From an uncultured SAR116 cluster alpha proteobacterium (lineage in GTDB: Bacteria > Pseudomonadota > Alphaproteobacteria > Puniceispirillales > Marisalimonadaceae), in NCBI GenBank assembly GCA_902616615.1, contig CACMTN010000004.1, positions 1 to 64,000 of the forward strand: a DNA stretch of 64,000 nucleotides, read 5' to 3'. The position numbers and the translations under genes were made by a program. The notes below the pieces were generated by a model. The model had not been told where the DNA came from, searched no databases, and saw nothing but the letters and a program-made list of their open reading frames with translations. Numbering within the stretch: position 1 is the first letter of the stretch; each line of letters begins with the position of its first letter. Below, one piece after another: positions 2,210 to 43,766 of this stretch.

Positions 2210-2292
2210 ATTTAATAAATTTTAGAACAAATTGAAAATTGATAAAGTTAGTATTTACATTTCAAATATTAACCCTTATAAAATAAAAAAAT

Positions 2293-2366
2293 GCGGGTAT
2301 TGTGTAGTGGTAAGACCTTAGCCTTCCAAGCTAATGACGCGAGTTCGATTCTCGCTACCCGCTCCA
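2293..2366 (+). tRNA. tRNA-Gly (anticodon TCC), CCA encoded
   Basis: Cloverleaf read by eye. The acceptor stem GCGGGTA pairs with TACCCGC (2356-2362), followed by discriminator T and an encoded CCA (2364-2366). The anticodon stem TTAGC/GCTAA encloses loop CTTCCAA, giving anticodon TCC at 2325-2327. The T arm contains GTTCGATTC. It stands alone between hemH and the convergent permease gene. Confidence 0.96.
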
Positions 2367-2425
2367 TGTAAAATAATTCTATCGCACTAAATACTTTATA
2401 AATAAGCTTTACTTTCAGTTAATAT

Positions 2426-3301: not shown

Positions 3302-3323
3302 TTATTGTACAATAAAAAATCTT

Positions 3324-4049
3324 CTAGTTTTTAGGGAGGGATAATTTGCCTAAGACACTGTACTTAGATAAGAGGTTTTTAACAAAGCCATTTTCTATAT
3401 TTTTTTTTACAAAATTATTTATAAAATTTTCAGCTTCTAAATTTCCAGGTTTGCTTCCAATACACTGATTTATATAAGTAAATGGCTCATTTAATATAAA
3501 GCAGTCAGTAGTTTTTTGTATATCATCACCTAATTTAGGTCTTAATCCAGCCAATACTTCGTATTTATTTTCTTGAAAAATTGCAAAAGATTCATCTATA
3601 GATTTTGCTCTTATTAAATCTGCATTTTTTATATTCTCCGTTAACCAAAGATCATATGCACTTCTTTCGGCAACGGCAATTTTAATTCCTTTTTTATCAA
3701 CATCTTTTAATGTTTTGATATTAAGTCCATTCCTGATGAGGAAAGTTGATTCAATAGAAGTGTATGGTAGACTAAATGTAATTGATTTGGCTCTTGCTGG
3801 TTCATTTGCAATATTTCCAATATCCCATACATCGTGCGAAATTGCATCTGCAAGTTCCCCAGGTCTATTAAAGGTAATTAATTTAACATCTACATTCAAT
3901 TCTTTAGCAAGCGCTCTTGCCATGTCTGGAGAAACTCCTTGCGGATCACCATTACTCTCTTTACCAGTAACTAATAAAAAGTTACTTAAATTTATAGCAG
4001 CTCTAAGGTATCCTTTCGGAGCTAATTGTTTTATTACATTTTCTATCAA
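3324..4049 (-). CDS. Solute-binding-protein-like (SBP_bac_3 fold) without signal peptide
   Basis: The 241 residues match the periplasmic amino-acid-binding fold: a start like GYLRAAINLSNFLLVTG, then GVSPDMARALAKEL, DVWDIGNIANEPARAKSITF and a second lobe with IKIAVAERSAYDLWL. The start is TTG (4047-4049) preceded by a GAGAG Shine-Dalgarno-like element. An in-frame stop lies a few codons upstream, so no signal peptide can be added: the product appears cytoplasmic. Signal-less members of this family exist in alphaproteobacteria; their role is not established. No ABC permease or ATPase is adjacent, only an EamA permease downstream, so a sensing or ligand-sequestering role is possible but speculative. 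Confidence 0.75.
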   Translation of the reverse strand: MIENVIKQLAPKGYLRAAINLSNFLLVTGKESNGDPQGVSPDMARALAKELNVDVKLITFNRPGELADAISHDVWDIGNIANEPARAKSITFSLPYTSIESTFLIRNGLNIKTLKDVDKKGIKIAVAERSAYDLWLTENIKNADLIRAKSIDESFAIFQENKYEVLAGLRPKLGDDIQKTTDCFILNEPFTYINQCIGSKPGNLEAENFINNFVKKNIENGFVKNLLSKYSVLGKLSLPKN

Positions 4050-4191
4050 AATAAACTCTCAAATTAATTGTTTATTATTTTTTATACACTCAAAAAATTT
4101 GATTATAAACTGAAATTTAATTAATTCATCACTTACAACAAAATATAATTGTCTAAAATTTAAGCAAATTTAATTTTATTTGAATATATTT

Positions 4192-4249
4192 TATACATTT
4201 TTTGTATTTTAGGGAAAAATTTATTTAATTGAATTTATTAAATAGGGGG
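4192..4249 (+). promoter_or_regulatory. Probable promoter and ribosome-binding site of amtB-glnK
   Basis: The 205 bp gap between the divergent genes holds a -10-like TATACAT at 4192-4198 and a strong Shine-Dalgarno AGGGGG at 4244-4249, which fixes the amtB ATG at 4255. I see no sigma-54 (GG-N10-GC) signature and no convincing NtrC site. The -35 region is only a poor TTTAAT, so the promoter call is weak; the RBS call is strong. Confidence 0.4.
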
Positions 4250-4254
4250 ATGAT

Positions 4255-5559
4255 ATGGATTTTTTTACTTCCAGAAAAAAATTTAAGTTTTTTAGTGTTT
4301 TTTCAACTTTGTTCTTGACGATGATTTCTTTTCCAGCTTTTGCTGAAATTAATAGTGGTGATACAGCCTGGATTTTGACCTCAACTGCTCTAGTATTATT
4401 TATGACTTTACCAGGTTTAGCTCTATTCTATGCAGGATTGGTGCACTCAAAAAATGTTGTATCAGTATTAATGCAACACTTCTCCCTTGCTTGTATGATA
4501 TCTATTATTTGGGTGGTTGTAGGTTATAGTTTAGCGTTTTCTGAGGGAAATGAATGGATTGGTGGGTTTGGTAATATGTTTATGAATTCGCTTGAATTAG
4601 AAACACCATCTGGGAGCATACCTGAAAGCCTTTTTGCAACATTCCAAATGACTTTTGCAATCATTACCCCTGCTCTTATGATAGGTGCGTTTGTAGAAAG
4701 GATTAAGTTTTCAGCAATGTTAATTTTTTTAAGTCTCTGGGTTTTAATTGTATATGCTCCTGTAACGCATTGGGTTTGGGGCGGTGGTATTTTGTCATCA
4801 TGGGGAACAATGGACTTTGCTGGAGGCATCGTTGTGCATGCAACTGCTGGCACAGCTGCTTTAGTTACAGCCTTAACACTTGGTAAAAGAAGAGGTTTTC
4901 CAAAATCTATTACACCACCACATAGTCCAATATTGACTATGATAGGAGCTTCAATGTTATGGATTGGATGGTTTGGTTTCAATGCTGGTTCAGCTTTAGG
5001 TGCTAATGGAGGTGCAGGAATGGCTATGTTAGTCACACATATATCTGCTGCGACTGCCTCATTAGTTTGGATGTTTATTGAATGGAAAAGATTTGGCAAA
5101 CCATCTTTAATTGGCATAGTTACTGGAATGGTGGCTGGACTTGCTACTGTTACACCTGCTTCAGGTTACATAGGTGTACCCGGAGGTCTGATTTTAGGAT
5201 TTTTAGGTGGCCTGCTATGTTACCTTGCAGTTGATTACATCAGAGGCAAACTTCAAATAGATGATAGCCTTGATGTTTTTGCAGTTCACGGTGTAGGTGG
5301 AATACTAGGCACACTACTCGTTGCATTTTTAGCTACCTCTTCATTTTCTGGATTAGGTCTTGCTGAGGGACAAACAGGAATTTCTCAATTTATAATACAG
5401 CTTAAAGCGGTTGTGCTTACCATAGTTTGGACGTCTTTCTTTACATATTTAATTTTAAAACTAACCTCTTTTATTGTGTCGTTAAGAGTAGACGAACAAG
5501 AAGAAATTGAAGGTTTAGACTTGCGTTCTCACGGAGAAAAAGGATATCATTCAGATTAG
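4255..5559 (+). CDS. amtB: Ammonium transporter
   Basis: Inner-membrane ammonia/ammonium channel. It has a cleavable N-terminal signal (about residues 1-30, ending PAFA) and eleven membrane segments. The twin pore histidines are present at H195 (GGIVVHATAG) and H345 (FAVHGVGG), 150 residues apart as in E. coli AmtB. FYAGLVHSKNV and THWVWGGG are typical. Its 434 residues fit the family. glnK follows after 11 bp, the standard arrangement in which the PII protein gates the channel. Confidence 0.97.
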   Translation: MDFFTSRKKFKFFSVFSTLFLTMISFPAFAEINSGDTAWILTSTALVLFMTLPGLALFYAGLVHSKNVVSVLMQHFSLACMISIIWVVVGYSLAFSEGNEWIGGFGNMFMNSLELETPSGSIPESLFATFQMTFAIITPALMIGAFVERIKFSAMLIFLSLWVLIVYAPVTHWVWGGGILSSWGTMDFAGGIVVHATAGTAALVTALTLGKRRGFPKSITPPHSPILTMIGASMLWIGWFGFNAGSALGANGGAGMAMLVTHISAATASLVWMFIEWKRFGKPSLIGIVTGMVAGLATVTPASGYIGVPGGLILGFLGGLLCYLAVDYIRGKLQIDDSLDVFAVHGVGGILGTLLVAFLATSSFSGLGLAEGQTGISQFIIQLKAVVLTIVWTSFFTYLILKLTSFIVSLRVDEQEEIEGLDLRSHGEKGYHSD

Positions 5560-5570
5560 GAGATTTCATC

Positions 5571-5909
5571 ATGAAATACTTTATTGCGATTATAAAACCT
5601 TTTAAACTTGATGATGTCAGGAATGCCTTAACTGAGATTGGAGTTGAAGGATTGACTGCATCAGAGGTTCGTGGATTTGGAAGACAAAGAGGGCAAACTG
5701 AAATTTATAGAGGAGCAGAATATAGTGTGTCATTTGTTCCCAAGCTTAAAATCGAAATAGCTGTCACTGATGATATGGAAGATGCTGTTCATGAGGCTCT
5801 ACTTCAAAGTGCTTGCACAGGACAAATTGGAGACGGTAAAATATTTGTTTTAGACCTTCATAGTGCAACTAGAATTAGAACAGGTGAAACTGAAAATAAC
5901 GCACTTTAA
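5571..5909 (+). CDS. glnK: PII nitrogen regulatory protein
   Basis: A 112-residue trimeric signal protein that senses 2-oxoglutarate and ATP/ADP and blocks AmtB when nitrogen is plentiful. The T-loop and its uridylylation tyrosine are present (YRGAEYSVSF, Tyr51), as are the C-terminal signature GDGKIFVLDL and the RIRTGE end. Linkage to amtB favours the name glnK over glnB. A clear RBS (AGGAG) precedes the ATG. Confidence 0.95.
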   Translation: MKYFIAIIKPFKLDDVRNALTEIGVEGLTASEVRGFGRQRGQTEIYRGAEYSVSFVPKLKIEIAVTDDMEDAVHEALLQSACTGQIGDGKIFVLDLHSATRIRTGETENNAL

Positions 5910-5914
5910 CTAAA

Positions 5915-7039
5915 TTAGACATACCATTCAGCTAACACATCTTTGTTTTTTTCAAAACTTAAATGTATTCTTTTTATATTTTTAAGGTTGTTTTTATTAA
6001 CTAATTGTTGAAGTGCCCATATAGCTGCACCTCTTATCAAAAAAGATTGATCATTTATTATTAAATTCTCTAAAATAGGTATTAATTCTTTATTTTTACT
6101 GTTACCTGCCGCAATACAACAATTCCTTATAAACCTATCCCTACCTATCCTTTTTATTGGTGATCCAGTAAATTTTTTTCTAAATTCTTGATTAGAAAGA
6201 TTCAATAATTCATTTAAATTAAAATTATATTTATTTTCTTTAAAATGAATTTCTTTTGTAATCTTTGCATATTTATTCCAGGGGCAAATCGCTAAACAAT
6301 CATCACACCCAAATATTCTATTTCCAATAGCTGTTCTAAATTTTTTTGGAATTGCGTTTCTGTGCTCAATGGTTAAATATGAAATGCACTTTGAAGCATC
6401 TAACTTATTTTCTTTATAAAATGCATCTGTTGGGCAAATATCAAGACATTTCGTACAAGAACCACAATAATTTTTTTCTTGTGAATCATATTCAAAAGAA
6501 TGATTTACAAGAATAACCCCTAAAAATAGCCATGATCCAAAATCTCTTGAAACTAAATTTGTATGCTTCCCTTGCCATCCTAAACCAGACTTTTCCGCTA
6601 GAGGCTTTTCCATTAAAGGAGCTGTGTCAACAAAAACTTTGATTTTTGTTTTTTTTGATTTTGGTAATTTAGAAATTAATTTACTTGAAAATAACTTAAG
6701 TCTTCCTTTGATTATTTTGTGATAATCCTTTCCTTGAGCATAAACAGATATGTTTCCTAAGTTTTTTTTATTTATTTTTTTTAAAGGATTATCTTTAGGT
6801 CCGTAATTTAAACCAAGTATAATTGCAGATTTTGCATCTTCCCATAAATTTAACGGTGATTTTCGTCTTTCGTAACTATTTGCAAGCCAGTTCATTTCTC
6901 CATGAAAGCCTAACTCTATAAATTCTTTTAGCCTTACGTCAGTATTTATTGGTAAATTAGAATCTGTAATCTTACAAACATCAAAATTAAATTCTTTGGC
7001 TAAATCTTGGATTATTTTTTTTTCATCAAATTTATACAT
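5915..7039 (-). CDS. queG: Epoxyqueuosine reductase
   Basis: Cobalamin- and Fe-S-dependent enzyme that reduces epoxyqueuosine to queuosine in tRNA, the last step of queuosine synthesis. The 374 residues show two ferredoxin-type 4Fe-4S motifs, CGSCTKCLDICP near residue 191 and GCDDCLAICPW near 243, plus the ADAKSAIILGLNYGP segment. The C-terminus carries the HEAT-like extension (AAIWALQQL). It lies just downstream of tgt (26 bp) and queA on the same strand, so three steps of one pathway sit together. The 3' end converges on glnK with a 5 bp gap. Confidence 0.95.
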   Translation of the reverse strand: MYKFDEKKIIQDLAKEFNFDVCKITDSNLPINTDVRLKEFIELGFHGEMNWLANSYERRKSPLNLWEDAKSAIILGLNYGPKDNPLKKINKKNLGNISVYAQGKDYHKIIKGRLKLFSSKLISKLPKSKKTKIKVFVDTAPLMEKPLAEKSGLGWQGKHTNLVSRDFGSWLFLGVILVNHSFEYDSQEKNYCGSCTKCLDICPTDAFYKENKLDASKCISYLTIEHRNAIPKKFRTAIGNRIFGCDDCLAICPWNKYAKITKEIHFKENKYNFNLNELLNLSNQEFRKKFTGSPIKRIGRDRFIRNCCIAAGNSKNKELIPILENLIINDQSFLIRGAAIWALQQLVNKNNLKNIKRIHLSFEKNKDVLAEWYV

Positions 7040-35055: not shown

Positions 35056-35262
35056 AGTTAATAATTAGAACATATATGGTACTTTAATTCAATATTAGTG
35101 ATTATGTACGAATTTATTTCTTAAGTTTGTAATTATAAGTTTAGACATATTATATAATCTTTCATCAGAGATCTTGTGATTAACGTGAATATTTTATTTT
35201 CTTAAGATGAGATGCAGTAATCTTAACTGTAAATGAAATAAAAACTTGAATATTGGGGTTTT

Positions 35263-35655
35263 ATGAATACCACATTACCCCTTCATTCAACCGTAGATAG
35301 TGGTAGTTGTACGTACGCAAGATTAAACACCGACTTTTTCTTTTGCTTTACTATCACTCAGAGAACTCCCCACTTGAATGTTCCTCAGTATTCACAATAC
35401 CAATTTTTCCTTTATGAGACAATCATTGAACAAAAAGAAAAAGGAAAGACCTTTGAGCAGATTGCAGAATGGTTTAATAAAAAAGGTTATCTATCCGTTC
35501 GTGAAAAAAAGTTCAAAGGTAATCATGTTCATTCAATTATGAAGAAGAAAAGACTTAAAGATGAAAAGTTAGAAAAAGAGTATCCAGAGGTTCGTTCTGA
35601 TTTTTACTTGGATATTTTTGATAAGACTTTGGTAAATATGTTTGAAGGGTTTTAG
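35263..35655 (+). CDS. Small recombinase-like protein at the outer end of cassette E1
   Basis: The conserved part starts at a TTG (35374, giving NVPQYSQYQFFLYETII) and contains EKGKTFEQIAEWFNKKGY and KGNHVHSIMKKKRLKDEK. This is the layout of the linker/HTH part of serine-recombinase 'Recombinase' domains (IAxxLNxxGxxT...V..I) without the catalytic resolvase domain. The frame is open back to ATG 35263, but those 37 residues read antisense through the glmS-tail copy S1 and are probably not native. It may be an accessory factor of cassette movement or a domesticated remnant. Confidence 0.6.
   Translation: MNTTLPLHSTVDSGSCTYARLNTDFFFCFTITQRTPHLNVPQYSQYQFFLYETIIEQKEKGKTFEQIAEWFNKKGYLSVREKKFKGNHVHSIMKKKRLKDEKLEKEYPEVRSDFYLDIFDKTLVNMFEGF
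35283..35297 (-). repeat. glmS-tail copy S1 (encodes S-T-V-E-stop)
   Basis: Minus strand reads tct acg gtt gaa tga, the last codons of glmS minus one Val codon, in the same orientation as glmS but 6.6 kb away. It is the outermost and most degenerate of the five extra tails. The sequence on its lptD side has no matching inverted partner that I could find, so the array's outer limit may be here. Confidence 0.6.
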
Positions 35656-35748
35656 ATTTTATTCGTTTTAAAACAGAGTTTTACTATCTTAGTCTGATCT
35701 ATTTAGTAGAGGTAAGAAGTTATTGGCAGTAAGATCTAAAAAGTTAAT

Positions 35749-36303
35749 TCATATGGGTAATTCTCCATAACATAGTTTGCAAATAGGATGAAAAATTTGT
35801 TTTTGCTTTATTTGCCTATCGGAAAGTAAATTTTCTTTACCGCATAGTGTGCAAGTAACTTTTGTTTGATTTTCTGTTTTTTGATGTTGGTTATTTTTTG
35901 AAACATTTTGGTTGAGATCATCTGCTCTTCCTTTTAATTCTTTTGGATTTGAAAAGTTCTCTTTCTCTAATATATGATTGTATTTAGACAAAAGACTAAG
36001 GAACTGTTGATCAACATAACCTTGTAAAAAAATGTTTGTTGAATACCAAGATGGTTCAAATTCAGAAGCACCTAAAGCATCCATTTGTTCTAATACTATT
36101 GTTTTTTCTTTTTCATCCATAGAAAAATACTTTGATGAAATTCGACTTCCATCTTTCAGGAATGCAAATTGATAGTCCGTATAATAATCCTTATCAGTTA
36201 TATTCTTCTTAAGAAGTTTAAAAGAAAGATATGCTGGTCCATCCGTTCTGTGATATTTACCGGATTGGATCCAATCATATGAGGTCAATTTTTTTTCCTT
36301 CAT
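35749..36303 (-). CDS. C-terminal part of a W..GK.HR..GPA repeat protein with zinc ribbon
   Basis: A 184-residue frame starting MKEKKLTSYDWIQSGKYHRTDGPAY, a copy of the W..G(K)..HR..GPA repeat known from many AT-rich bacterial and phage proteins. It ends in a zinc-ribbon: CTLCGKENLL with CKLCYGEL. It overlaps the preceding gene by 29 bp in another frame. Reading across the overlap, an eight-A run (plus-strand T at 36289-36296) joins EYEGKK to LTSYDW, giving two consecutive repeats in one protein. So this may be the 3' half of a frameshifted gene instead of a separate protein. Confidence 0.55.
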   Translation of the reverse strand: MKEKKLTSYDWIQSGKYHRTDGPAYLSFKLLKKNITDKDYYTDYQFAFLKDGSRISSKYFSMDEKEKTIVLEQMDALGASEFEPSWYSTNIFLQGYVDQQFLSLLSKYNHILEKENFSNPKELKGRADDLNQNVSKNNQHQKTENQTKVTCTLCGKENLLSDRQIKQKQIFHPICKLCYGELPI

Positions 36304-37183
36304 ATTCTGTTATTGTTTCTTTTTGTGGTCCATTAACCCGATGTTTGCCACCAAATACCCAGTACTCAGTCTCCCAAACTTGATATAGTTGATCTTCCGA
36401 TTTGAAATTCCGTTTGACTGCTGGTCCCGTTAGATTGTGTCGTAAAAATTCTTCTCGCCTATTTTCGCTAGACCAAATCCAAATACCTTTTTCATAAGAT
36501 CCTGGATCGCCAGTATTCAAAGTTCGTTTCTCTGGATTAATGTTGATCCAGTCGACTTGATCTAAGGTTGGATATTTATTTTTGTTCGGAGGTGTTAAGT
36601 TCTTAAAAAACATAGATTTTTCTAAATATTCTATTTCACTATTCAAATCATTTTTATTAAGTTCTAAATCCCTTTTCCTCAGCAGTTTTAATGCATGTTT
36701 TAATGTAAGAAGATCAGATGAATATGAAATTTCTGGATTATCTAGTGGAAAAAATAGATTTGATAACGAATGATATTTATCAATAAAAGGTGAGAAAAAA
36801 ACTAACCAATTTTTAATTATTCTTTTGCGTTGCTCATGCACTTCTAGAGAGTTTTTCAGTCTATTGGGATGGAAAATTAATTGTTCTTTCAGTATGTTTC
36901 TGTACTTTATTTTTTTGATAAATGATGTCCCTTTAATACATTTTTTATAGCAATCTTCGTAGGTTGAGTTGAAATCTAGAAAAGCAAATCCTTTTTTATT
37001 TATTAACTCTAGAAATTCTTGTTCTGGGATAAAAATTTTTTCTTTTTTGTTTGATATTTTCCCAAATTTAACAAAGTCATATGCATCAGCATCCATGTAA
37101 CCATAGACTTCAATTAGACTACGGAAGAAAATCAAGAGGTTTGCTTCTACAATGTGCTTATAAAAAAATTTTTTTTCGTACAT
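36275..37183 (-). CDS. N-terminal part of a W..GK.HR..GPA repeat protein
   Basis: A 302-residue frame. The first 200 residues are unrecognised, helical and lysine-rich. The end carries the repeat segment REEFLRHNLTGPAV and then YWVFGGKHRVNGPQKETI. It stops right after EGKKIDLI, where an A8 run puts the next repeat in the +1 frame. Function unknown; repeat proteins of this type are often cassette- or phage-borne. Start is an ATG about 55 bp inside the E1 inverted repeat. Confidence 0.55.
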   Translation of the reverse strand: MYEKKFFYKHIVEANLLIFFRSLIEVYGYMDADAYDFVKFGKISNKKEKIFIPEQEFLELINKKGFAFLDFNSTYEDCYKKCIKGTSFIKKIKYRNILKEQLIFHPNRLKNSLEVHEQRKRIIKNWLVFFSPFIDKYHSLSNLFFPLDNPEISYSSDLLTLKHALKLLRKRDLELNKNDLNSEIEYLEKSMFFKNLTPPNKNKYPTLDQVDWININPEKRTLNTGDPGSYEKGIWIWSSENRREEFLRHNLTGPAVKRNFKSEDQLYQVWETEYWVFGGKHRVNGPQKETITEYEGKKIDLI

Positions 37184-37259
37184 TTAATTAAATTCAGTTG
37201 TAAACTATCGTTAGTTTTTCACTAAAAAATTGAAATTACAATCTTGCGTACCCACAGCG

Positions 37260-37277
37260 TTATTCCACAGTGAACGA
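37260..37277 (-). repeat. glmS-tail copy S2 (encodes S-F-T-V-E-stop)
   Basis: Minus strand reads tcg ttc act gtg gaa taa, preceded by H-K codons (cac aaa), compared with A-K before the tail in glmS itself. One amino acid differs (Val to Phe). It lies exactly between the inner repeat of E1 and the outer repeat of E2. Confidence 0.75.
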
Positions 37278-37685
37278 TTTGTGGGGTTGTGTGGGTTTTT
37301 CTTAGTACGGAATTCCCTCATCAACTCTCCTCATTTTTATTTGATTCTCATCAAGGTTTAACTTTTTCACTACAGGGTGTTTTTCATCAACAACCCTCCA
37401 GTAAGGAAAATTTTCATCATCTTTATGCTGTTCAATTGCCATTCTTAGAAATATCCCAGTTGTTACTGGACAAGTATTATCTGCCCCCGCTTTTAATGCT
37501 AGTCCACGCCTAAGTTCTTTAATACTTAGATGAGAACCCTTGGGTATCGTAAAAATAAACTCTGAAATTTTCTCTGGCGAAGAAATAAGCATTTTCTCGC
37601 CAGCAGAAATATCGGAAAACCCTTTATCTAGAATTTTTACAATATTTCTACTCAATGATTATCTCCTAAAATCCACACAACCCCA
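37278..37685. mobile_element. Cassette E2, single-gene cassette between S2 and S3
   Basis: The smallest unit, about 0.4 kb. Terminal inverted repeats are TGGGGTTGTGTGGGTTTTT at 37282-37300 and the complement of TGGGGTTGTGTGGATTTTA at 37667-37685 (17 of 19 identical). One gene fills the interior: its stop codon is 1 bp from the left repeat and its start is 12 bp from the right one. This gene-cassette economy, with nothing but one CDS and the two ends, is the best argument that the array is made of discrete mobile units. Confidence 0.7.
37302..37655 (-). CDS. MGMT-like DNA-binding domain protein
   Basis: A 117-residue protein resembling the 'MGMT family protein' group: FIFTIPKGSHLSIKELRRGLALKAG, then NTCPVTTGIFLRMAIEQ and PYWRVVDEKHPVVKKL. 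These proteins share the DNA-binding fold of O6-alkylguanine-DNA alkyltransferases but the alkyl-acceptor PCHR motif is absent. The TCPVTTGIF cysteine is the family's own feature and may or may not be reactive. It is the only gene of cassette E2. Role unknown; DNA lesion recognition is a guess. Confidence 0.7.
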   Translation of the reverse strand: MSRNIVKILDKGFSDISAGEKMLISSPEKISEFIFTIPKGSHLSIKELRRGLALKAGADNTCPVTTGIFLRMAIEQHKDDENFPYWRVVDEKHPVVKKLNLDENQIKMRRVDEGIPY

Positions 37686-37703
37686 TCATTCGACTGTAAC
37701 GGA
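37686..37703 (-). repeat. glmS-tail copy S3 (encodes S-V-T-V-E-stop)
   Basis: Minus strand reads tcc gtt aca gtc gaa tga, preceded by I-Q codons. The amino acids are those of GlmS; four of five sense codons use a third base different from the resident tail. The left repeat of E2 ends and the right-hand E3 repeat begins within two bases of its edges. Confidence 0.78.
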
Positions 37704-37809
37704 CTGAATTTAAAGTAACATAATAGAAAAAAATGAAACCCAAAATAGAGTTTCAACACTTATTACTTTGTAAAATAATTTTAGTTCTTTCCTCATAATT
37801 CTACAGATT

Positions 37810-38313
37810 TCATTTTTTAATATACTTCTTTAAATCTTTAGTTATTTCTTTTATTGAAGACAAATAACTACATTTATATTCTTTTCTACCTTTAGTATGT
37901 ATTAAAATTAAATTATCTTTGTAAACAGTACCAATATATCTTATTTCAATATAAGATTTTTTTTCATTATAATTTACATTTCTACTTTTTATTTGTTTGT
38001 TTGATAAAAAATAACTATTCAATATTTTTGAATTTTCAAAGTAAAAGTAAAATGGATAACCTCTCATAGTAGGTTCTTTTTTTTCACATTTTATTGATTT
38101 TCCTAAAAATTCATTTCCGTCACTACAATTCAAAAACAATTCAACTGATGTTTCATTAATGTACTCTTCACATTTTTTGAATGAATTTAGTAGAAGTTTT
38201 TTTTCAATGAGTTTTTCTTTATGTTCTTCATAATTGAATTTTTTTTCCTCAGAATATGTTGTTTTGAAGAAAAGAAAACAAATCAGAAAATTAATAAAAA
38301 TTATTTTTTTCAT
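37810..38313 (-). CDS. Small secreted protein of unknown function
   Basis: A 167-residue protein with a signal peptide (MKKIIFINFLICFLFFKTTYS). The mature part is charged and has several cysteines (SFKKCEEY, LFLNCSDG, SIKCEKKE, EYKCSYL) and beta-rich stretches (SYIEIRYIGTVYKDNLILIH). No family recognised. It is cargo of cassette E3 and divergent from the adhesin-E-like gene, so the 112 bp between them probably carries both promoters. Confidence 0.6.
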   Translation of the reverse strand: MKKIIFINFLICFLFFKTTYSEEKKFNYEEHKEKLIEKKLLLNSFKKCEEYINETSVELFLNCSDGNEFLGKSIKCEKKEPTMRGYPFYFYFENSKILNSYFLSNKQIKSRNVNYNEKKSYIEIRYIGTVYKDNLILIHTKGRKEYKCSYLSSIKEITKDLKKYIKK

Positions 38314-38425
38314 TAATAGATTATAACTAAAATATGAAAATTTAAAAATGATTGTTAACCCAAATATTATTAAATAACTTTTTATAAACCTCCTACTTTT
38401 TAACTTTTTATAGTAGGATAGTTAA

Positions 38426-38809
38426 ATGTTAAAAACTTTAATAACATTTATTATTTTCATTTTTCCTTCGGTTTGTTTTGGTGATTTTGAATGGAAACTA
38501 ATAACAAAAACAAAAAAAGGAGACTTCTATGTAGATATGAAGTCTTTAACAATTAAAGATAATAAAAGATTTTACTTAAGATTGAGAGATTATAAAAAAA
38601 TTGATAAATATGGTGAAAGATCAAATATAATTCACTTTGAAACAAACTGTCTTAATTTAAAAAGTAGATTTTTAAAAGATATTTATTTTGAGGACCATAT
38701 GGGTAAAGGGAAATTTAAGGTTCAAAATGAAGTAAGTGATTGGATTGTTTTTAAAAAAGGATCAGTAGGAAATTATTTTATTAATCAAATTTGTTCTTTT
38801 AAAAAATAG
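38426..38809 (+). CDS. Surface-adhesin protein E-like secreted protein
   Basis: A 127-residue protein with a signal peptide (MLKTLITFIIFIFPSVCFG). The rest follows the adhesin-E pattern: FEWKLITKTKKGDFYVDMKSL, RFYLRLRDYK, SNIIHFETNC, LKDIYFEDHMGKGKF, and a final NQICSF cysteine that could pair with the earlier one. The family name comes from a Haemophilus surface protein; adhesion is not proven for this one. Cargo of cassette E3. Confidence 0.65.
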   Translation: MLKTLITFIIFIFPSVCFGDFEWKLITKTKKGDFYVDMKSLTIKDNKRFYLRLRDYKKIDKYGERSNIIHFETNCLNLKSRFLKDIYFEDHMGKGKFKVQNEVSDWIVFKKGSVGNYFINQICSFKK

Positions 38810-38826
38810 ATCTATCAAATATCAAA

Positions 38827-39210
38827 TTAAAATTCTCTCCAAAGTTCCCAATCCCTTACTTTGAATCGAGTGTTATGTTTTCTTTGTTCTCTTTTCTTTA
38901 ATTTACTAATACAAACCCAAACATCTTTCATTGTATAGTCATCTTTCTTATTTCTTCTTTGAATTTTATTTAAGTTTAAGAAAGAAACTATCTCCTTATT
39001 TGACCAACCTTTATTGTGTAATTTCATAATTAGATTTAGACGATATTGATTTGTCGGATTGATATAATTGATAGATAGAGATTGAGTTTCAATGTCTAAA
39101 GTATTAGTGAAGAAATAACCATTATTGGGATGAAAATTTGGAAGTTGTCTTCGTATTACTTTAAATTCACTCCACTGTGACTGATTGTTTCGGCAAGTGG
39201 GTAGTTCCAA
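38827..39210 (-). CDS. Small recombinase-like protein ending at tail S4
   Basis: Conserved core: NQYRLNLIMKLHNKGWSNKEIVSFLNLNK and YTMKDVWVCISKLKKREQ, the same general layout (aliphatic helix, KGxxxxEI...LN, V..I..KK) as the recombinase-like protein at the outer end of E1. No in-frame ATG precedes the core except distant alternative codons; the open frame runs into S4 and the E4 repeat, where a TTG at 39210 is the only marked start. The N-terminus is therefore either truncated at the cassette edge or uses a rare codon. Confidence 0.5.
   Translation of the reverse strand: MELPTCRNNQSQWSEFKVIRRQLPNFHPNNGYFFTNTLDIETQSLSINYINPTNQYRLNLIMKLHNKGWSNKEIVSFLNLNKIQRRNKKDDYTMKDVWVCISKLKKREQRKHNTRFKVRDWELWREF
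39167..39184 (-). repeat. glmS-tail copy S4 (encodes S-V-T-V-E-stop)
   Basis: Minus strand reads tca gtc aca gtg gag tga, preceded by K-Q (aaa caa). The extra Gln codon relative to glmS (A-K-S) is shared with S5 and partly with S3, suggesting those cassettes come from related donors. Confidence 0.8.
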
Positions 39211-39290
39211 AAAATAGATCCTGTCATATAGTTGATTTTGATCTTTTGGAGATAATTTTAGATTTAAGAAAAAAATATAAGATTAATTGA
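39177..39290 (+). CDS. Short conserved cassette-end ORF (E4)
   Basis: GTG start lying inside tail S4 (antisense), 37 codons: VTDCFGKWVV... then VDFDLLEIILDLRKKY. A clear homologue occupies the same position in E5 (39811). Conservation of the second half across two otherwise different cassettes argues for a real, if tiny, product or a conserved end structure. Function unknown. It lies opposite in strand to the recombinase-like gene of E3, overlapping its 5' end. Confidence 0.35.
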   Translation: MTDCFGKWVVPKNRSCHIVDFDLLEIILDLRKKYKIN

Positions 39291-39800
39291 TACTTCTTAA
39301 ATTATTAACTGCATTATTTTTTTATAAAAGATTTTAAGTGAATAATAAATTTTCAATACGATATTTTTGAAAATATTCTAAAATTATTGAGTTTCTAAAA
39401 TTACTAACCTATAATTTTAAAATGGAAAGTAAAGATGATATATTAAATAAAATCAGTGAGCATGAAATAGAATATTTTGATGATATTCCTGAAGAATTTC
39501 GCAATAATGAATAAATTATTTATGCCCTCATAGATGAGAATGATGGTGAACCACTTTGTTCATTTCCTGAGAACTCCGCGTGGAAAAAAGACAAGAAATT
39601 AGTAATGCATGCAATTGAAATTTATTTGAATATTTATAGGAATGATTTACTAGAAGATGATAGTCTTCATATTATGTATGATTACGCTCATGAGGATTTA
39701 CATAAAGATGAAGATATAATTACTCTGATTGGGGTAGAACCAGAATAAAATCAGTAGAATTTTTGTCAAATATGTAGATATTAAATACCCACTTACCAAA
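39185..39800. mobile_element. Cassette E4 between S4 and S5
   Basis: About 0.6 kb. Inverted repeats GGCAAGTGGGTAGTT (39192-39206) and the complement of GGTAAGTGGGTATTT (39783-39797) match at 13 of 15 bases. Contains a short ORF at the S4 end and one decayed gene. Its repeat is related to that of E5 (GGCAAGGGGGTA), and both cassettes begin with homologous short ORFs, so E4 and E5 look like the same element family. Confidence 0.65.
39422..39748 (+). pseudogene. Acidic protein gene interrupted by an in-frame stop (cargo of E4)
   Basis: One frame from ATG 39422 encodes MESKDDILNKISEHEIEYFD ... RNNE, meets TAA at 39512-39514, and goes on in the same frame as IIYALIDENDGEPLCSFPEN ... HEDLHKDEDIITLIGVEPE to a TAA at 39746. 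The downstream part is clearly protein-like, acidic and with normal codon use. The whole would be 108 residues. Not recognised as a family. Either a nonsense-decayed gene, or only the downstream part is translated from an internal start (ATG in LVMHAIEIY). Confidence 0.5.
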
Positions 39801-39818
39801 CTACTCAACAGTGACTGA
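39801..39818 (-). repeat. glmS-tail copy S5 (encodes S-V-T-V-E-stop)
   Basis: Minus strand reads tca gtc act gtt gag tag, preceded by L-L-K-Q. The 34 bp from 39786 align without gaps to 41904-41937 at the resident glmS end with 26 identities, and most mismatches inside the tail are at third codon positions. It is the copy nearest to glmS. Confidence 0.82.
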
Positions 39819-39939
39819 TTGTTTCAGTAAGGGGGTAAATAAAAAAAACAAAAAAGTCTATCCTCCTGATTTTGATCTCATAGAAATCATTAAAAAATTG
39901 AAAGAAAAATATCAAAAAAAATTGCCTAAATACAACTAG
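39811..39939 (+). CDS. Short conserved cassette-end ORF (E5)
   Basis: GTG start inside tail S5, 42 codons: VTDCFSKGVNKKNKKVYPPD then FDLIEIIKKLKEKYQKK. It is homologous to the ORF at the same end of E4 (FDLLEIILDLRKKY). It converges on the GIY-YIG gene with a 4 bp overlap. No known family. Confidence 0.35.
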   Translation: MTDCFSKGVNKKNKKVYPPDFDLIEIIKKLKEKYQKKLPKYN

Positions 39940-40622
39940 TTATTTTGAAAACTAACCCACATATCTAGATGCCAAATTTTAATAGGTTTTTTTCCAATTT
40001 GTACCTCTGAGTTTAACGTGAAAATATCTTTATTATATGTCTTCATAAAATAAAATATTAAAGATTCAAATTCAGATAATCTTTCATCAATATTTTCAGA
40101 AATTAGAAAATTATCAAATGATGATAATTCAAAAAAAGAAATATAAATATCCTTCAAATTTATGCTATCTTTTCCAAAAGTTTTGTAACGAAATTTTGCA
40201 TATTCTTGCCACTTTTGAGGATGGTCATGTTTTTTATTATTAGTTGCAGTTAATTTTGTAATATGTGCATGAAATCTTTGCTCTATTTTCTTATCCGTTT
40301 TACCTACATAAAAGAATGTTTCATTTTTTAATAAATATATACCAAGAGATTCTTTTGAAATGCCTAATATATTATCGAGACGAATATTTAATTGAAGATT
40401 ACTTTCATTTCTTTCTGGTTGCGTGAGCGATCTTCCCGCACCATAGAATATTTTTCTATATTTCTGATTCCATTCAAAAAAAGTTGGTTGTGAATAGTCA
40501 AATATCCTTAATATTGGATAAAAATGAGAAACATATGTTTTTTTAATCAACTCGTATATTATTTTTTTGTTGTTTAGAACATTGTTTTTAAAAGATTGAT
40601 ATTTTAGATTATCAACATTCAT
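39936..40622 (-). CDS. GIY-YIG nuclease-like protein
   Basis: The 228-residue protein starts at MNVDNLKYQ, 11 bp inside the end of the PD-(D/E)XK gene; the frame is open further upstream but overlaps that gene heavily. The GIY-YIG fold is seen at LGIYLLKNETFFYVGKTDKK (about residues 90-110) with the following RFHAHI arginine and histidine, and the catalytic-glutamate region may be DERLSEFESLIFYFM. The N-terminal 90 residues may bind DNA or partner. Translational coupling to the other nuclease suggests joint action. Confidence 0.7.
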   Translation of the reverse strand: MNVDNLKYQSFKNNVLNNKKIIYELIKKTYVSHFYPILRIFDYSQPTFFEWNQKYRKIFYGAGRSLTQPERNESNLQLNIRLDNILGISKESLGIYLLKNETFFYVGKTDKKIEQRFHAHITKLTATNNKKHDHPQKWQEYAKFRYKTFGKDSINLKDIYISFFELSSFDNFLISENIDERLSEFESLIFYFMKTYNKDIFTLNSEVQIGKKPIKIWHLDMWVSFQNN

Positions 40623-41439
40623 TATTTGAGTTCTTCTCATACAAATTTGCTTGTTTAGTATATGCACAATTTTTACAACTTGAATTTGCCTTTGGTGCTT
40701 TTTTGTCATTCAACAGTTTTATCATTTGAACAATTTGTTCTCTAATCCAATTAGATTTCCATAGATATGGAATTAAAACTTCTTGAAAATTCATTTTACC
40801 ATAAAATCCATCGGCATCTCTGTCAGCATTACAAACAAGAAAAAAAGCAGTATCTTCAACATCAAAACCCATCTTTTGGAGAAGATAGGCGTAAAAATCT
40901 ATTTGAACTTTGTAACCATGCTTATAAACGTCGGAAAGGTATGTTTTTGGTTCTAAAGGCGCAGAATTTGCTTGGGATTTGTAATCTACAAGGATTAATT
41001 TTCCATTTTTGGTATTTTGCCAAATATCATCTACCCCACCTGTAAGAATAATATTAGTATCTTCAAACCTTGCTGTAAGACCATGGTGAAGAGAATCACG
41101 CCACTTATCCATATCAGGATGTTGATACGGAACAACATGCTCTAAACCGTTTTTCAAAAACAACCGATGAGGTGTTTGAGAATTACGACAATCATCAAAT
41201 TCTTTTTTTAGAAGATGATCAGTAGTATCGTTTAATGACCATCCTGGTGTACCAGGTGGATCTAAACCAACAACTCTATCTAAATAAAAACAACGAGGAC
41301 AGGTAAGAAAGTTAGAGAATTTACCTCTGCTAATTTTAAAATCTTCTGATTGATTAGATTTGTAAATAGAAGATGAACGAGATCTAATGCCAGTTGCTAA
41401 AACAAGTTCTTTTTTACTATTTCGTTTCAAATCAATCAT
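40612..41439 (-). CDS. PD-(D/E)XK nuclease with Cas4/AddB-like cysteines
   Basis: A 275-residue nuclease-fold protein. GGVDDIWQ then LILVDYKSQA supply the D...DxK metal site (near residues 134 and 150). An N-terminal cysteine pair (FLTCPRCFYLD) and C-terminal SSCKNCAYT recall the Fe-S cluster of Cas4- and AddB-like nucleases. PGTPGWSLNDTTDHLLKKEFD is typical of a PD-(D/E)XK group frequent in marine alphaproteobacteria. Helicase and CRISPR genes are absent. Possible roles: DNA processing in defence or in cassette movement. Confidence 0.75.
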   Translation of the reverse strand: MIDLKRNSKKELVLATGIRSRSSSIYKSNQSEDFKISRGKFSNFLTCPRCFYLDRVVGLDPPGTPGWSLNDTTDHLLKKEFDDCRNSQTPHRLFLKNGLEHVVPYQHPDMDKWRDSLHHGLTARFEDTNIILTGGVDDIWQNTKNGKLILVDYKSQANSAPLEPKTYLSDVYKHGYKVQIDFYAYLLQKMGFDVEDTAFFLVCNADRDADGFYGKMNFQEVLIPYLWKSNWIREQIVQMIKLLNDKKAPKANSSCKNCAYTKQANLYEKNSNNEC

Positions 41440-41501
41440 TTTTTAAGTATATTTGATTATAATAAAAAGTGAAAAAATAATTTAAAAAAAATGGAGGCGG
41501 A

Positions 41502-41900
41502 ATGAGTGATTATAATTTATTTCTTGAACCTGACGAAGATATAGAAACTTTTAGGGATATAATCACAGATAACGTATTTATAAAAGGTGAATTATTAAAA
41601 AAGGGTGAAAAAAAATCTTTTGGTAATATGTGTATTCTTGAAGGTGTAAATAATAGTAAAGAAGGTGATGACAAAGTTAGATCAAATTTTTTACTTCATA
41701 CACAAGCAGAAGATAATATTAAAATTCAAATTTTGTGGGACTACGCTCCAGTTGGAGACCAACCATCTGAATATGATTATGAGACTTATTCTGAATTTTT
41801 TTTTGAAGATACAGGAAAAGGACCTTTTGATGAAGGTCCAAATATAGACCCACGTAATAATAGTAACTGGGAAGAAATCTTAACAGATATGAATTCTTAA
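41502..41900 (+). CDS. Acidic protein of unknown function
   Basis: A 132-residue, strongly acidic protein (FLEPDEDIETFRDIITD, YDYETYSEFFFEDTGKGPFD). Start ATG 41502 has a strong GGAGG Shine-Dalgarno 9 bp upstream. No signal peptide or family recognised. It diverges from the nuclease pair of the same cassette. Acidic partners of nucleases are sometimes inhibitors or DNA mimics, so an immunity or antitoxin function is conceivable, but this is only inference from charge and position. Confidence 0.6.
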   Translation: MSDYNLFLEPDEDIETFRDIITDNVFIKGELLKKGEKKSFGNMCILEGVNNSKEGDDKVRSNFLLHTQAEDNIKIQILWDYAPVGDQPSEYDYETYSEFFFEDTGKGPFDEGPNIDPRNNSNWEEILTDMNS

Positions 41901-41918
41901 AAGTACCCCCTTGCCGAA

Positions 41919-41936
41919 CTATTCCACCGTTACCGA
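41919..41936 (-). repeat. Resident glmS tail S6 (S-V-T-V-E-stop)
   Basis: The functional 3' end of glmS: tcg gta acg gtg gaa tag. Listed because five relatives lie downstream (S1-S5). The E5 inverted repeat begins 3 bp beyond the stop codon. The C-terminal residues of GlmS are highly conserved because they form part of the active site, which makes this a stable target for site-specific elements; Tn7 uses the same gene end. Confidence 0.85.
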
Positions 41937-43766
41937 TTTTGCTAAATTTCTTGGTTGATCTACGTCAGTGCCTCTTTCATTGGCTACATGATATGCAAGT
42001 AATTGTGCTGGAATAGCCATTAACAACGGAGATAATAGTGATTTAAAATCAGTTTCAAAATTTGGAATTTCTATTTTTAAATGGGCAAAGGACGCCTTTT
42101 CAATACATTTTCTATCACCAATCAAAATAACCTTAGCACCTCGTGAGTATGCTTCCTGTAAATTACTTATTGCTTTATCTTCATTACCGTCTGAAACTAA
42201 AAACATTATCACAGGCACGTTATCTTCTATTAAAGCAATTGGCCCATGTTTCATTTCTCCAGCAGCAAATCCCTCAGCATGTATATAGCTGATTTCTTTT
42301 AATTTCAAAGCACCCTCAAGTGCTATTGGATACAATAGCCCCCTACCTAGAAAAATTATACTTTTAGAATTTTTTATGTTTTGTGCTACTAGTTTAATTT
42401 TATCTTCTATCTTTAGCATTTGTGCAATAGCATTTGGCAACTTATTTACATAATTACAAAATCTATGTATTTTCTTTGATTGTAATTTATTAAATTTTTC
42501 TCCTAAAGCAATTGAAATCACAAATAAAATAATCAACTGTGACGTAAAAGATTTTGTGCTGGCCACCCCTATTTCTGCACCTACTCTAGTATATAAGCTA
42601 TATTCAGCTTCTCTGTCTATCGTACTACCTTCAACATTTACAATTGAATTAGTACTAAGACCAAGTTTTTTGGCATACCTCAAAGCCATAAGTGTATCTA
42701 AACTCTCACCTGATTGTGAAATAACGATCATAGAGGTTTGACCAAATATAGATGGCTTTCTATATCTATATTCTGAAGCTAAATCAACAATTACAGGTAA
42801 ATCAGCAATATGCTCAATCCAATATTTACCAACCATTGCTGCATAGTAACTTGTACCAGCTGCGGTAATAAGCAAAGCACTTTTAGTTTCTATTCCTAAT
42901 CTTCTTAAATTTATATTTATTTCAGAATTATTTTTAATTAAGTTAGAAATTGTTTGGGGTATAACTGAGGGTTGTTCAAATATTTCTTTTTCCATGAAAT
43001 GTCTATAACCACCCTTTGTTATCAAACCAATTTCTGCTTTTATATTTATAATCTTTCTATTTATCTTATTTTTATTCTTATCAAAAATTTCTATACCATC
43101 TAAATTTACCAATGCATGATCACCATCCTCTAAATAAATAATTCTTTGGGTCAAATGATCAATCGATTTAGCATCTGATCCAACAAAATTTGATTTTTCT
43201 CCCAAACCAATTGCCAAAGGTGATGAATTTCTTGATACAAATAATTGGTTTGGAAAATCTAAACTCATTGCTACAAAAGCAAATGCACCTTTTATATCTT
43301 GTAAAACAAGTCTTCCTGCCTTTAGAAAATCATTTCCTAGCTTTATATATTTCATAAATAAATGTGGCAAAACTTCAGTATCAGTTTGGCTCTTAAACAC
43401 AAATCCTTCTGAGATGAGATCTTCTTTTAAAATTTCATAATTTTCTATAATCCCATTGTGGACAACTGCTATTCTGTTTTCACTAGTAAGTGGATGAGCA
43501 TTATCAACATTTACATTTCCGTGCGTAGCCCACCTTGTATGACCTAAAGCTATTGAGGAATCAAAATATTTTTTTTCATTTGATAGCCTGCTTATCTTAT
43601 CAACTAATTTAAAAAGTTTACCCTCAGACTTAACTATTTGAAGCAACCCATTAGCTTCGGATGCAATGCCTGCAGAGTCATATCCTCTATATTCAAGTTT
43701 TTTTAAACCCTCAATTACGAGTTGACTTGCATTTTCTTTTCCTATAACAGCGACAACACCGCACAT
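41919..43766 (-). CDS. glmS: Glutamine-fructose-6-phosphate aminotransferase
   Basis: Makes glucosamine-6-phosphate, the entry to UDP-GlcNAc for peptidoglycan and LPS. The 615 residues comprise an N-terminal glutaminase domain with catalytic Cys2 (MCGVVAVIG) and two SIS sugar-isomerase domains (AAGTSYYAAMVGKYWIEH, SQSGESLDTLMALR, GRGLLYPIALEGALKLKEISY). The C-terminus is DQPRNLAKSVTVE. The gene is intact, although mobile cassettes have accumulated directly behind it. Divergent from glmU across 82 bp. Confidence 0.98.
   Translation of the reverse strand: MCGVVAVIGKENASQLVIEGLKKLEYRGYDSAGIASEANGLLQIVKSEGKLFKLVDKISRLSNEKKYFDSSIALGHTRWATHGNVNVDNAHPLTSENRIAVVHNGIIENYEILKEDLISEGFVFKSQTDTEVLPHLFMKYIKLGNDFLKAGRLVLQDIKGAFAFVAMSLDFPNQLFVSRNSSPLAIGLGEKSNFVGSDAKSIDHLTQRIIYLEDGDHALVNLDGIEIFDKNKNKINRKIINIKAEIGLITKGGYRHFMEKEIFEQPSVIPQTISNLIKNNSEININLRRLGIETKSALLITAAGTSYYAAMVGKYWIEHIADLPVIVDLASEYRYRKPSIFGQTSMIVISQSGESLDTLMALRYAKKLGLSTNSIVNVEGSTIDREAEYSLYTRVGAEIGVASTKSFTSQLIILFVISIALGEKFNKLQSKKIHRFCNYVNKLPNAIAQMLKIEDKIKLVAQNIKNSKSIIFLGRGLLYPIALEGALKLKEISYIHAEGFAAGEMKHGPIALIEDNVPVIMFLVSDGNEDKAISNLQEAYSRGAKVILIGDRKCIEKASFAHLKIEIPNFETDFKSLLSPLLMAIPAQLLAYHVANERGTDVDQPRNLAKSVTVE

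What the first reader, a model, noticed from the sequence alone, without database searches (positions are those of the whole stretch)
35283..41936. Tandem array of five extra glmS 3' ends dividing the accessory region into discrete cassettes
Besides the true glmS end at 41919-41936, five copies of the glmS tail are found at 35283, 37260, 37686, 39167 and 39801, all in glmS orientation. On the minus strand each encodes S-(V/F)-T-V-E-stop (S1 lacks one codon). Copy S5 aligns without gaps over 34 bp to the glmS end. The spacings are 2.0, 0.4, 1.5, 0.6 and 2.1 kb. This is the pattern left when small elements repeatedly insert at the glmS 3' end, each leaving the previous tail behind. Tn7 also targets glmS but does not copy the gene end and does not stack in arrays like this. 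I know of no described system with these properties.
Basis: partly seen in the sequence, partly recalled or inferred. Interest (0 to 1): 0.93.

Follow-up and report, generated by a model that had tools for sequence, protein, structure and literature searches.

The report
Stacked serine-recombinase cassettes after glmS
Behind the gene glmS of a marine SAR116 bacterium lies a row of five small DNA cassettes, each bounded by copies of the glmS end and likely placed there by a serine recombinase whose own gene is predicted to be cut in two by the insertion, an arrangement that a 2021 review knew only from archaea.

Summary
Observation confirmed: five glmS tails (one a codon short) follow glmS in its orientation. 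(1) Each cassette ends in its own inverted repeats around a 22-bp core. (2) The tails are hybrids: sites sharing a right flank share the right core half, sites sharing a left flank the left half; the switch falls at the central AC, as in serine recombination. (3) In relatives, 5.9-13 kb elements at glmS carry a large serine recombinase (LSR) ending at the site; at their other end lies a ~120-aa domain (RDp), also in two window cassettes. Joined as a circle, LSR and RDp are one frame in one of four elements; nine database proteins are such fusions. So attP appears to lie inside the recombinase gene. Cassettes 92-99% identical sit in genomes whose glmS is 63-66% identical. The system also occurs in SAR86 and other Alphaproteobacteria. 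It works like SCC plus archaeal suicidal integrases and is a member of neither. Integration, excision and RDp function are inferred.

The parts
41919..43766 (-). glmS, the target gene; its last 22 bp (41919-41940) are the glmS-side core
39823..41918 (.). Cassette 5 (2096 bp). Arms 39823-39837 and 41904-41918 (13 of 15 paired). Cargo: PD-(D/E)XK nuclease 40612-41439 (-), unassigned 257-aa ORF 39936-40709 (-), 132-aa ORF 41502-41900 (+)
39801..39822 (-). S5: 22-bp core (SVTVE*)
39189..39800 (.). Cassette 4 (612 bp). Arms 39189-39206 and 39783-39800 (15 of 18 paired); arms related to those of cassette 5
39167..39188 (-). S4: 22-bp core (SVTVE*)
37708..39166 (.). Cassette 3 (1459 bp). Arms 37708-37718 and 39156-39166 (11 of 11). 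Cargo: Adhesin_E-like ORF 38426-38809 (+) and 167-aa ORF 37810-38313 (-)
38827..39210 (-). RDp of cassette 3, at the glmS-proximal end reading inward; found with the family profile, not by Pfam; the listed ORF start lies beyond the site, in cassette 4
37686..37707 (-). S3: 22-bp core (SVTVE*)
37282..37685 (.). Cassette 2 (404 bp). Arms 37282-37299 and 37668-37685 (17 of 18). One 117-aa ORF 37302-37655 (-). 93.6% and 94.1% identical to cassettes of two genomes of another family
37260..37281 (-). S2: 22-bp core (SFTVE*); its left half CAAATCGTTCA is found with cassette 2 in three genomes
35302..37259 (.). Cassette 1 (about 1.96 kb). Arms 35313-35324 and 37240-37251 (12 of 12, but 11 and 8 bp away from their cores, a 3-bp difference). 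Cargo: ORFs 36275-37183 (-) and 35749-36303 (-)
35263..35655 (+). RDp of cassette 1 (PF07508 Recombinase, E 8.4e-06), at the glmS-distal end reading inward from S1
35283..35301 (-). S1: shortened core (STVE*, one codon missing)
35153..35299 (-). Weak RDp-like stretch with stops (E 1.1e-4), possibly the start of a sixth, decayed cassette; its far end was not found

Best explanation
The window shows a tandem array of five cassettes with terminal inverted repeats, each likely put behind glmS by conservative site-specific recombination at the central AC of a 22-bp site, catalysed by a large serine recombinase that the full-size elements of the family encode. Shown by sequence: 22-bp cores, paired arms in fixed register, hybrid cores switching between core positions 10 and 13, seven LSR frames without stops that end at such sites in relatives, and near-identical cassettes in distant genomes. 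Inferred: the element circle carries attP = arm, core, arm, and recombines with the glmS end (attB); the incoming right half-core completes glmS with the same amino acids, so GlmS stays intact. Read directly in one element and in nine database proteins, inferred for the rest: attP lies inside the recombinase gene, so integration would detach the C-terminal domain (RDp) and leave it at the other end of the element. No LSR was found in the window's genome, so its cassettes are likely non-autonomous; one relative's cassette (L066) keeps both the last ~36 LSR codons and an RDp, as an internal-deletion form would. Such cassettes would be moved in trans by the LSR of an incoming or resident full-size element.
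For: Arms: all 5 neighbouring pairs in the window score 20-31 (random 30-mer pairs reach these scores with frequency 0.00005-0.0099). Of the other pairings only S4 with glmS (26) and S5 with itself (17) exceed 15, because cassettes 4 and 5 have related arms. Across 107 sequences, 37 of 78 adjacent site pairs score >=20, 36 of those 37 in exact register, against a mean of 3.0% (maximum 9.3%) for partners shuffled between loci. Crossover: with right flanks >=92% alike (20 pairs, 16 clusters), identity at core position 10 is 0.40 and at 13 is 0.85; with left flanks >=92% alike (10 pairs, 8 clusters) it is 0.90 and 0.20; background 0.29 and 0.27. At >=75% (103 and 30 pairs): 0.31 and 0.61, and 0.67 and 0.27. 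Enzyme: seven LSRs (frames of 558-602 aa) with their 3' ends 7-54 bp from a site; R-V-S invariant in all seven. Split gene: RDp sits at the opposite end in 4 of 4 elements with both ends seen, and one of four circle junctions is a single 706-aa frame. Nine of 120 listed LSR relatives carry RDp at the C terminus (676-727 aa, E 4e-20 to 9e-35); seven of the nine show the translated core motif 6 of 6 at the junction. All 7 LSR frames have an A9-A10 run in their last 180 nt, against 9 of 718 other frames >=200 aa. LSR 3' remnants: L066 (36 aa, 94%), L242 (37 aa, 89%), L247 (139 aa, 36%). Mobility; an identical 38-bp arm-only cassette in two genomes with different neighbours. Specificity: of the best-scoring RDp loci fetched outside the order, 9 of 9 alphaproteobacterial and 8 of 12 SAR86 loci have the glmS end DxDQPRNLAKSVTVE in the 1.5-kb flanks.
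Against: No integration or excision was observed, and no closed circle was seen. 41 of 78 adjacent site pairs lack a clear arm match (score under 20; decay or missed sites). Only 26 of 78 loci with >=1 kb downstream have a further perfect core. No LSR match in the window's genome, which is 75% complete. In three of four circle junctions LSR and RDp are in different frames, so a fusion would need slippage or RDp is a separate gene; no start codon of RDp was identified. The crossover is bounded only to between positions 10 and 13, since positions 11-12 hardly vary; in the small left-flank set position 16 also lies above background (0.60 against 0.39). Two fused proteins (P0124, P0152) have a second 6-of-6 motif elsewhere, and P0151's junction was not located. 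The RDp model (mean pLDDT 85) had no PDB match below E 0.001.
Confidence: 0.86

Rival explanations
1. RDp is only a leftover piece of the recombinase gene, dragged along because it flanks the attachment site, with no role of its own in the small cassettes.
For: RDp frames mostly start at or next to a site and RDp is the C-terminal end of nine fused proteins. One public entry (P0070) is named 'recombinase family protein, partial'. Several copies are interrupted by stops. No certain start codon.
Against: 98 intact RDp frames in 57 of 107 sequences; dN/dS median 0.142, maximum 0.463, over the 139 pairs kept (>=70% aa identity, 0.05<pS<0.70; pairs not independent). The constraint could have acted in full-length ancestors.
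Confidence: 0.35
2. A tyrosine recombinase (Xer-like or integron-like) inserts the cassettes at a glmS core.
For: Tyrosine recombinase matches occur in 80 of 81 genomes searched, and one LSR element (L107) also carries a 210-aa tyrosine recombinase. Gene-end regeneration is common for such enzymes (recalled).
Against: Wobble positions 10 and 13, three bases apart, change parent sharply; a 6-8-bp overlap (recalled) would be expected to blur this. Seven LSRs end at the sites. Arms pair between the two ends of a cassette rather than within one site as in attC (S5 alone also pairs within itself).
Confidence: 0.06
3. DDE transposons with terminal inverted repeats and a 22-bp target-site duplication at glmS.
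For: Terminal inverted repeats and flanking direct repeats are present.
Against: A target-site duplication is copied whole on both sides; here each core half follows its own neighbour. Arm sequences differ between cassettes. No DDE domain was reported for the ten window ORFs scanned; shorter ORFs were not scanned.
Confidence: 0.03
4. Tn7-like elements using TnsD-type targeting of glmS.
For: glmS is the classical Tn7 target (recalled).
Against: Tn7 inserts downstream of the stop codon and does not copy the gene end (recalled). Here the crossover is inside the last codons, and serine recombinases end at the sites. No Tns protein was reported among ten window ORFs, but no dedicated Tns search was run.
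Confidence: 0.02

Closest known systems
Staphylococcal / enterococcal cassette chromosome (SCC, ECC; CcrA/CcrB/CcrC)
   Same: Large serine recombinase; insertion in the 3' end of a conserved gene; direct repeats at both ends; inverted repeats giving dyad symmetry in the circle site (passages of PMC6222049). Tandem and recombinase-less forms are recalled for SCC.
   Different: Target is glmS, not rlmH. The L102 LSR scores 33.6 bits on the CcrA model against a cut-off of 700. Arms vary between cassettes. Cassettes down to 38 bp of arms only. attP apparently inside the recombinase gene. Marine Alpha- and Gammaproteobacteria.
Archaeal suicidal integrases (SSV1, pTN3, pT26-2 types)
   Same: The attachment site lies in the recombinase gene, so integration splits it; excision would need an intact enzyme from elsewhere (passages of PMC8371274).
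   Different: Those are tyrosine recombinases, and that 2021 review calls self-disrupting recombinases exclusive to archaea. Here the enzyme is a serine recombinase in bacteria, the part with the catalytic domain stays whole, and the detached C-terminal domain is widespread as an intact frame.
Integration-dependent immunity of mycobacteriophages
   Same: attP inside a coding gene whose 3' end is lost on integration (passages of PMC9262239).
   Different: There the split gene is the repressor and the enzymes are tyrosine integrases.
Integron gene cassettes
   Same: Small one- or few-gene cassettes stacked at one site, with varying inverted arms.
   Different: Sites lie between cassettes and arms pair across the cassette, not within attC; serine recombinase. 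All statements on integrons are recalled.

Membership tests
SCC/ECC | Recombinase of the CcrA/CcrB/CcrC families | tested here: not met
   L102 LSR: CcrA 33.6 bits, cut-off 700; L102 RDp: CcrB 18.7, cut-off 900; the other six LSRs were not scanned with NCBIfam
SCC/ECC | Insertion at the rlmH 3' end | tested here: not met
   Sites follow glmS ends
SCC/ECC | Direct repeats plus inverted repeats around the crossover | tested here: met
   5 of 5 cassettes in the window, 37 of 78 adjacent pairs in the order
SCC/ECC | Excision as a circle | not testable with these tools
   No reads or strains; fused attP-bearing proteins in databases are indirect
Suicidal integrases (SSV type) | Tyrosine recombinase | tested here: not met
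   PF00239 + PF07508 in the four LSRs scanned
Suicidal integrases (SSV type) | Attachment site within the recombinase gene | tested here: met
   One continuous 706-aa frame of four circle junctions; nine fused proteins, seven with the core motif exact; the other three junctions change frame
Large serine recombinase integrative elements (general) | Resolvase and Recombinase domains, crossover near the centre of dyad half-sites | tested here: met
   Domains; crossover bounded to core positions 10-13. Met for the full-size elements; the window cassettes carry no LSR
Integron | attC: paired arms within one site | tested here: not met
   Arms pair across cassettes; of six window sites only S5 pairs within itself (17)
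Integron | IntI integrase | not tested
   Not searched as such
Tn7 | TnsABCD proteins | not tested
   No dedicated search; none among Pfam hits of ten window ORFs
Tn7 | Insertion downstream of glmS without copying its end | tested here: not met
   Gene end copied and hybrid; the Tn7 rule is recalled

The most novel reading that the evidence does not exclude
A cassette-capture system of marine Proteobacteria built on a self-splitting large serine recombinase: attP lies in the recombinase gene, every integration parts the catalytic body from its C-terminal module, and arrays keep a stock of detached modules with matching arms. A new circle, or slippage across a junction into the next cassette's module, can pair one catalytic body with another module, switching site affinity and moving non-autonomous cassettes in trans. 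It would be the first bacterial and first serine 'suicidal' recombinase and an integron-like library at an essential gene.
Probability: 0.45. Interest if true: 0.93.

Novelty: new variant of a known kind. Interest (0 to 1): 0.84.

Why it matters
SAR116 and SAR86 are abundant, mostly uncultured ocean bacteria (recalled), and this gives a defined insertion site and a likely enzyme for a variable region in them, with cargo that includes restriction-modification and nuclease genes. If confirmed, it extends gene-splitting integration, which a 2021 review held to be exclusively archaeal, to bacteria and to serine recombinases. It also offers a family of recombinases with a natural target in glmS that seems to tolerate wobble changes, and many natural att variants whose crossover point is already bounded to three bases.

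Tried and rejected
Tn7, DDE transposition and tyrosine or integron mechanisms were set aside for the reasons in the rivals. Tandem duplication of glmS was rejected because only 18-22 bp of it recur and wobble bases differ. A general inverted-repeat search of the region showed only AT-rich pairs among the 25 longest of 1528; a site-anchored comparison was needed. The far end of a sixth cassette left of S1 was sought by its arm in window 20000-64000 and not found. An LSR in the own genome was sought and not found (genome 75% complete). RDp fold against the PDB: nothing below E 0.001. LSR relatives in viral contigs: 18 stretches matched a pattern, none encoded a relative. Papers: searches (glmS with recombinase, integrase or island terms; SAR116; suicidal integrase with serine recombinase) listed nothing that describes this system; one search listed one review and two papers (one on Tn7 target selectors), seen as listings only, and only the archaeal review. 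Searches were searches for comparators, seen as listings. PMC12884075 holds no 'glmS' in its main text. These searches cover one open-access library.
Full report
1. Observation. S[VFIL]TVE-stop in any codon spelling occurs five times on both strands of the 64 kb: glmS and S2-S5; S1 reads STVE-stop, and the shorter TVE-stop has one stray hit at 40706. A degenerate pattern with up to two mismatches finds 6 hits against 1.04 expected, and no shuffle of 100 reaches 6.

2. The missing half of the observation: inverted arms. In glmS orientation each cassette begins directly after a stop codon and ends 4 bp before the next SVTVE. The two ends are inverted repeats of each other: 12 of 12, 17 of 18, 11 of 11, 15 of 18 and 13 of 15 for cassettes 1 to 5. 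In cassette 1 the arms lie 11 and 8 bp from their cores. Non-neighbouring arms do not match, except that cassettes 4 and 5 have related arms: S4 pairs with glmS at 26, better than with its neighbour S5 at 21, and S5 with itself at 17. So between any two cassettes lies a 22-bp core: four bases plus the SVTVE-stop codons.

3. It is general in the order. Record titles of the closest named relatives say SAR116 cluster, several with SCGC or AG- names that I read as single-cell genomes. 107 sequences were examined: the window, loci downstream of glmS, and contigs chosen because they carry RDp or an LSR. 89 hold a complete glmS end; 78 of those have at least 1 kb downstream, and 26 of the 78 have at least one further perfect core within 15 kb. 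Downstream of glmS there are 45 perfect cores on the glmS strand and 0 on the other in 793,685 bp. Of 46 outgroup loci (other Alphaproteobacteria and SAR86, some with under 1 kb downstream), 45 were readable and one had a perfect further core. That one is an array in a complete SAR86 genome, with matching arms and an RDp. Adjacent sites (core 13 or 14 of 14) show arm pairing in 37 of 78 cases, 36 in exact register, against a mean of 3.0% and a maximum of 9.3% for partners shuffled between loci. The distance from glmS to the first conserved flanking gene rises with the number of sites (r = 0.71, n = 44; in L111, without a further site, lptD follows after 125 bp).

4. The cores are hybrids. I compared the 22 core positions of 178 sites between those whose right flanks are alike and left flanks are not, and the reverse; pairs with a glmS left flank were dropped from the left test. 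At >=92% flank identity, right-alike pairs (20 pairs, 16 clusters) agree at wobble position 13 in 0.85 and at position 10 in 0.40. Left-alike pairs (10 pairs, 8 clusters) agree at position 10 in 0.90 and at position 13 in 0.20. Background is 0.29 at position 10 and 0.27 at position 13. At >=75%, right-alike pairs (103) agree at position 13 in 0.61 and at 10 in 0.31, left-alike pairs (30) at position 10 in 0.67 and at 13 in 0.27 (first seen). Sites were selected on non-wobble positions, which leaves the wobble columns free; the left set is small and its position 16 (0.60) also lies above background (0.39). The parent switches between positions 10 and 13, around the central AC. The 404-bp cassette 2 shows it by eye: in three genomes its downstream core begins CAAATCGTTCA and then differs, and its upstream core ends GAATGA after differing starts.

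5. The enzyme. PF00239 was found in 30 of 81 genomes. Seven large serine recombinases, with open frames of 558-602 aa, have their 3' ends 7-54 bp from a site. Four of them lie in elements with both ends seen (5.9, 8.4, 9.6 and 13.0 kb). Those four have Resolvase and Recombinase domains, and the R-V-S of the catalytic serine is invariant in all seven. Two further PF00239 frames over 300 aa (463 aa in G055, 323 aa in G064) had no site in the stretch fetched, and L108 holds a 177-aa N-terminal LSR fragment 2.7 kb from glmS. The window's genome gave one 234-aa frame and no LSR (75% complete).

6. RDp and the split gene. A small protein of about 115-135 aa with the Recombinase helix-turn-helix lies at the sites. 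Searches started from either window copy converge on the same 95 frames in 61 sequences. RDp occurs in 69 of 136 genomes of the order. In 4 of 4 LSR elements with both ends, RDp is at the opposite end from the LSR, so in a circle the LSR runs towards RDp across attP. In L102 this is one frame of 706 aa. In L107 and L069 RDp is in the -1 frame and in L088 in the other frame. All seven LSR frames have an A9-A10 run in the last 180 nt, against 9 of 718 other long frames, which suggests slippage; this is untested. Of 186 LSR relatives found, 120 were listed, and nine of these, 676-727 aa long, carry an RDp domain at their C terminus. Seven of the nine show the glmS core translated in another frame, 6 of 6 residues, at residues 576-595 (two of the seven have a second such motif elsewhere); P0145 scores 5 of 6 there; P0151's junction was not located by the script. 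Flanking residues of the other eight are compatible with matched arms at 15-18 of 18 positions, against a mean of 13.6 for mismatched pairs with a maximum of 17; this last test is weak because codons are degenerate. Hence attP appears to lie in the recombinase gene.

7. Non-autonomous cassettes. A cassette in L066 keeps 36 codons of an LSR 3' end (94% identical) 49 bp before its distal site and an RDp at its other end. L242 keeps 37 such codons (89%) and L247 139 codons at 36%. An identical 38-bp cassette of arms alone occurs in two genomes with different neighbours. RDp shows dN/dS of 0.142 (median of the 139 pairs kept), so it is or was constrained.

8. Mobility. Cassette 2 of the window is 93.6% and 94.1% identical to those of L094 and L099, where glmS is 63.0% and 62.8% identical at DNA level. 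L064 and L238 share a 2-kb cassette at 92.2% (glmS 66.4%). L066 and L242 share 1093 bp of cassettes 1713 and 2546 bp long at 98.7% (glmS 64.9%). L121 and L255 share 922 bp at 99.7%, without a glmS comparison. The other matching pairs listed were 74-90% alike, or lay in close relatives (L094 and L099, 99.5%, glmS 93.1%).

9. Range. RDp matches were found in 24 of 203 genomes of the order of the SAR86 genome, 20 of them at E below 1e-10, and in 35 of 385 Alphaproteobacteria drawn evenly, 10 of them outside the window's order at E below 1e-10. Many of the weaker ones lie in frames of 500-600 aa, as expected for the Recombinase domain of ordinary LSRs. Of the 24 best loci fetched (L277-L300), 23 have a core site in the stretch fetched and 18 of these show the glmS end DxDQPRNLAKSVTVE: 9 of 9 alphaproteobacterial loci outside the order, 8 of 12 SAR86 loci, and L291 of the own order. 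Three SAR86 loci have another sequence before the site; in two of these the translation upstream reads like type I restriction genes, by eye.

10. Comparison. It works like SCC/ECC, but the one LSR tested fails the Ccr models and the target differs. It splits its gene like archaeal suicidal integrases, which a 2021 review calls exclusive to archaea and which are tyrosine enzymes. Statements on Tn7, integrons and recombinase-less SCC are recalled. What is shown is architecture and inheritance of sequence; integration, excision, trans mobilisation and RDp function are inferred.

Noticed in passing
L071:1831-1891 and L077 (glmS orientation) 5884-5944: Smallest cassette: an identical 38 bp made only of the two arms, between cores, with different neighbours in the two genomes.
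   Followed up: partly
L233:11807-14612 (CP097973, SAR86, complete genome): The same array with an RDp behind glmS in a gammaproteobacterium.
   Followed up: yes
3' ends of the seven LSR frames (L069, L088, L102, L107, L143, L144, L145): A9-A10 run in the last 180 nt of 7 of 7 LSR frames against 9 of 718 other frames >=200 aa; possible slippage site.
   Followed up: partly
L079, element 1582-6976 in glmS orientation: The element carries a type I restriction-modification set (HsdR-like 835 aa, methylase plus specificity 783 aa).
   Followed up: partly
L102, L107, L143, L145: Recurrent 205-244-aa proteins ending in GKFP or GRFP on LSR-bearing loci; two scanned with Pfam and three with NCBIfam gave no match.
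   Followed up: no
L102:8096-8671, and beside the LSR in L069, L088 and L145: A second, small resolvase-type serine recombinase (191-205 aa) next to the LSR.
   Followed up: no
L278-L280: In three SAR86 genomes the site follows a short NPLCRIKSVTVE tail, not an ordinary glmS end; in two of them the upstream translation looks like type I restriction genes.
   Followed up: partly
window 40612-41439: PD-(D/E)XK nuclease resembling Cas4-type exonucleases (Pfam, PHROG and PADLOC Cas4 hits) as cargo; no CRISPR context was looked for.
   Followed up: no
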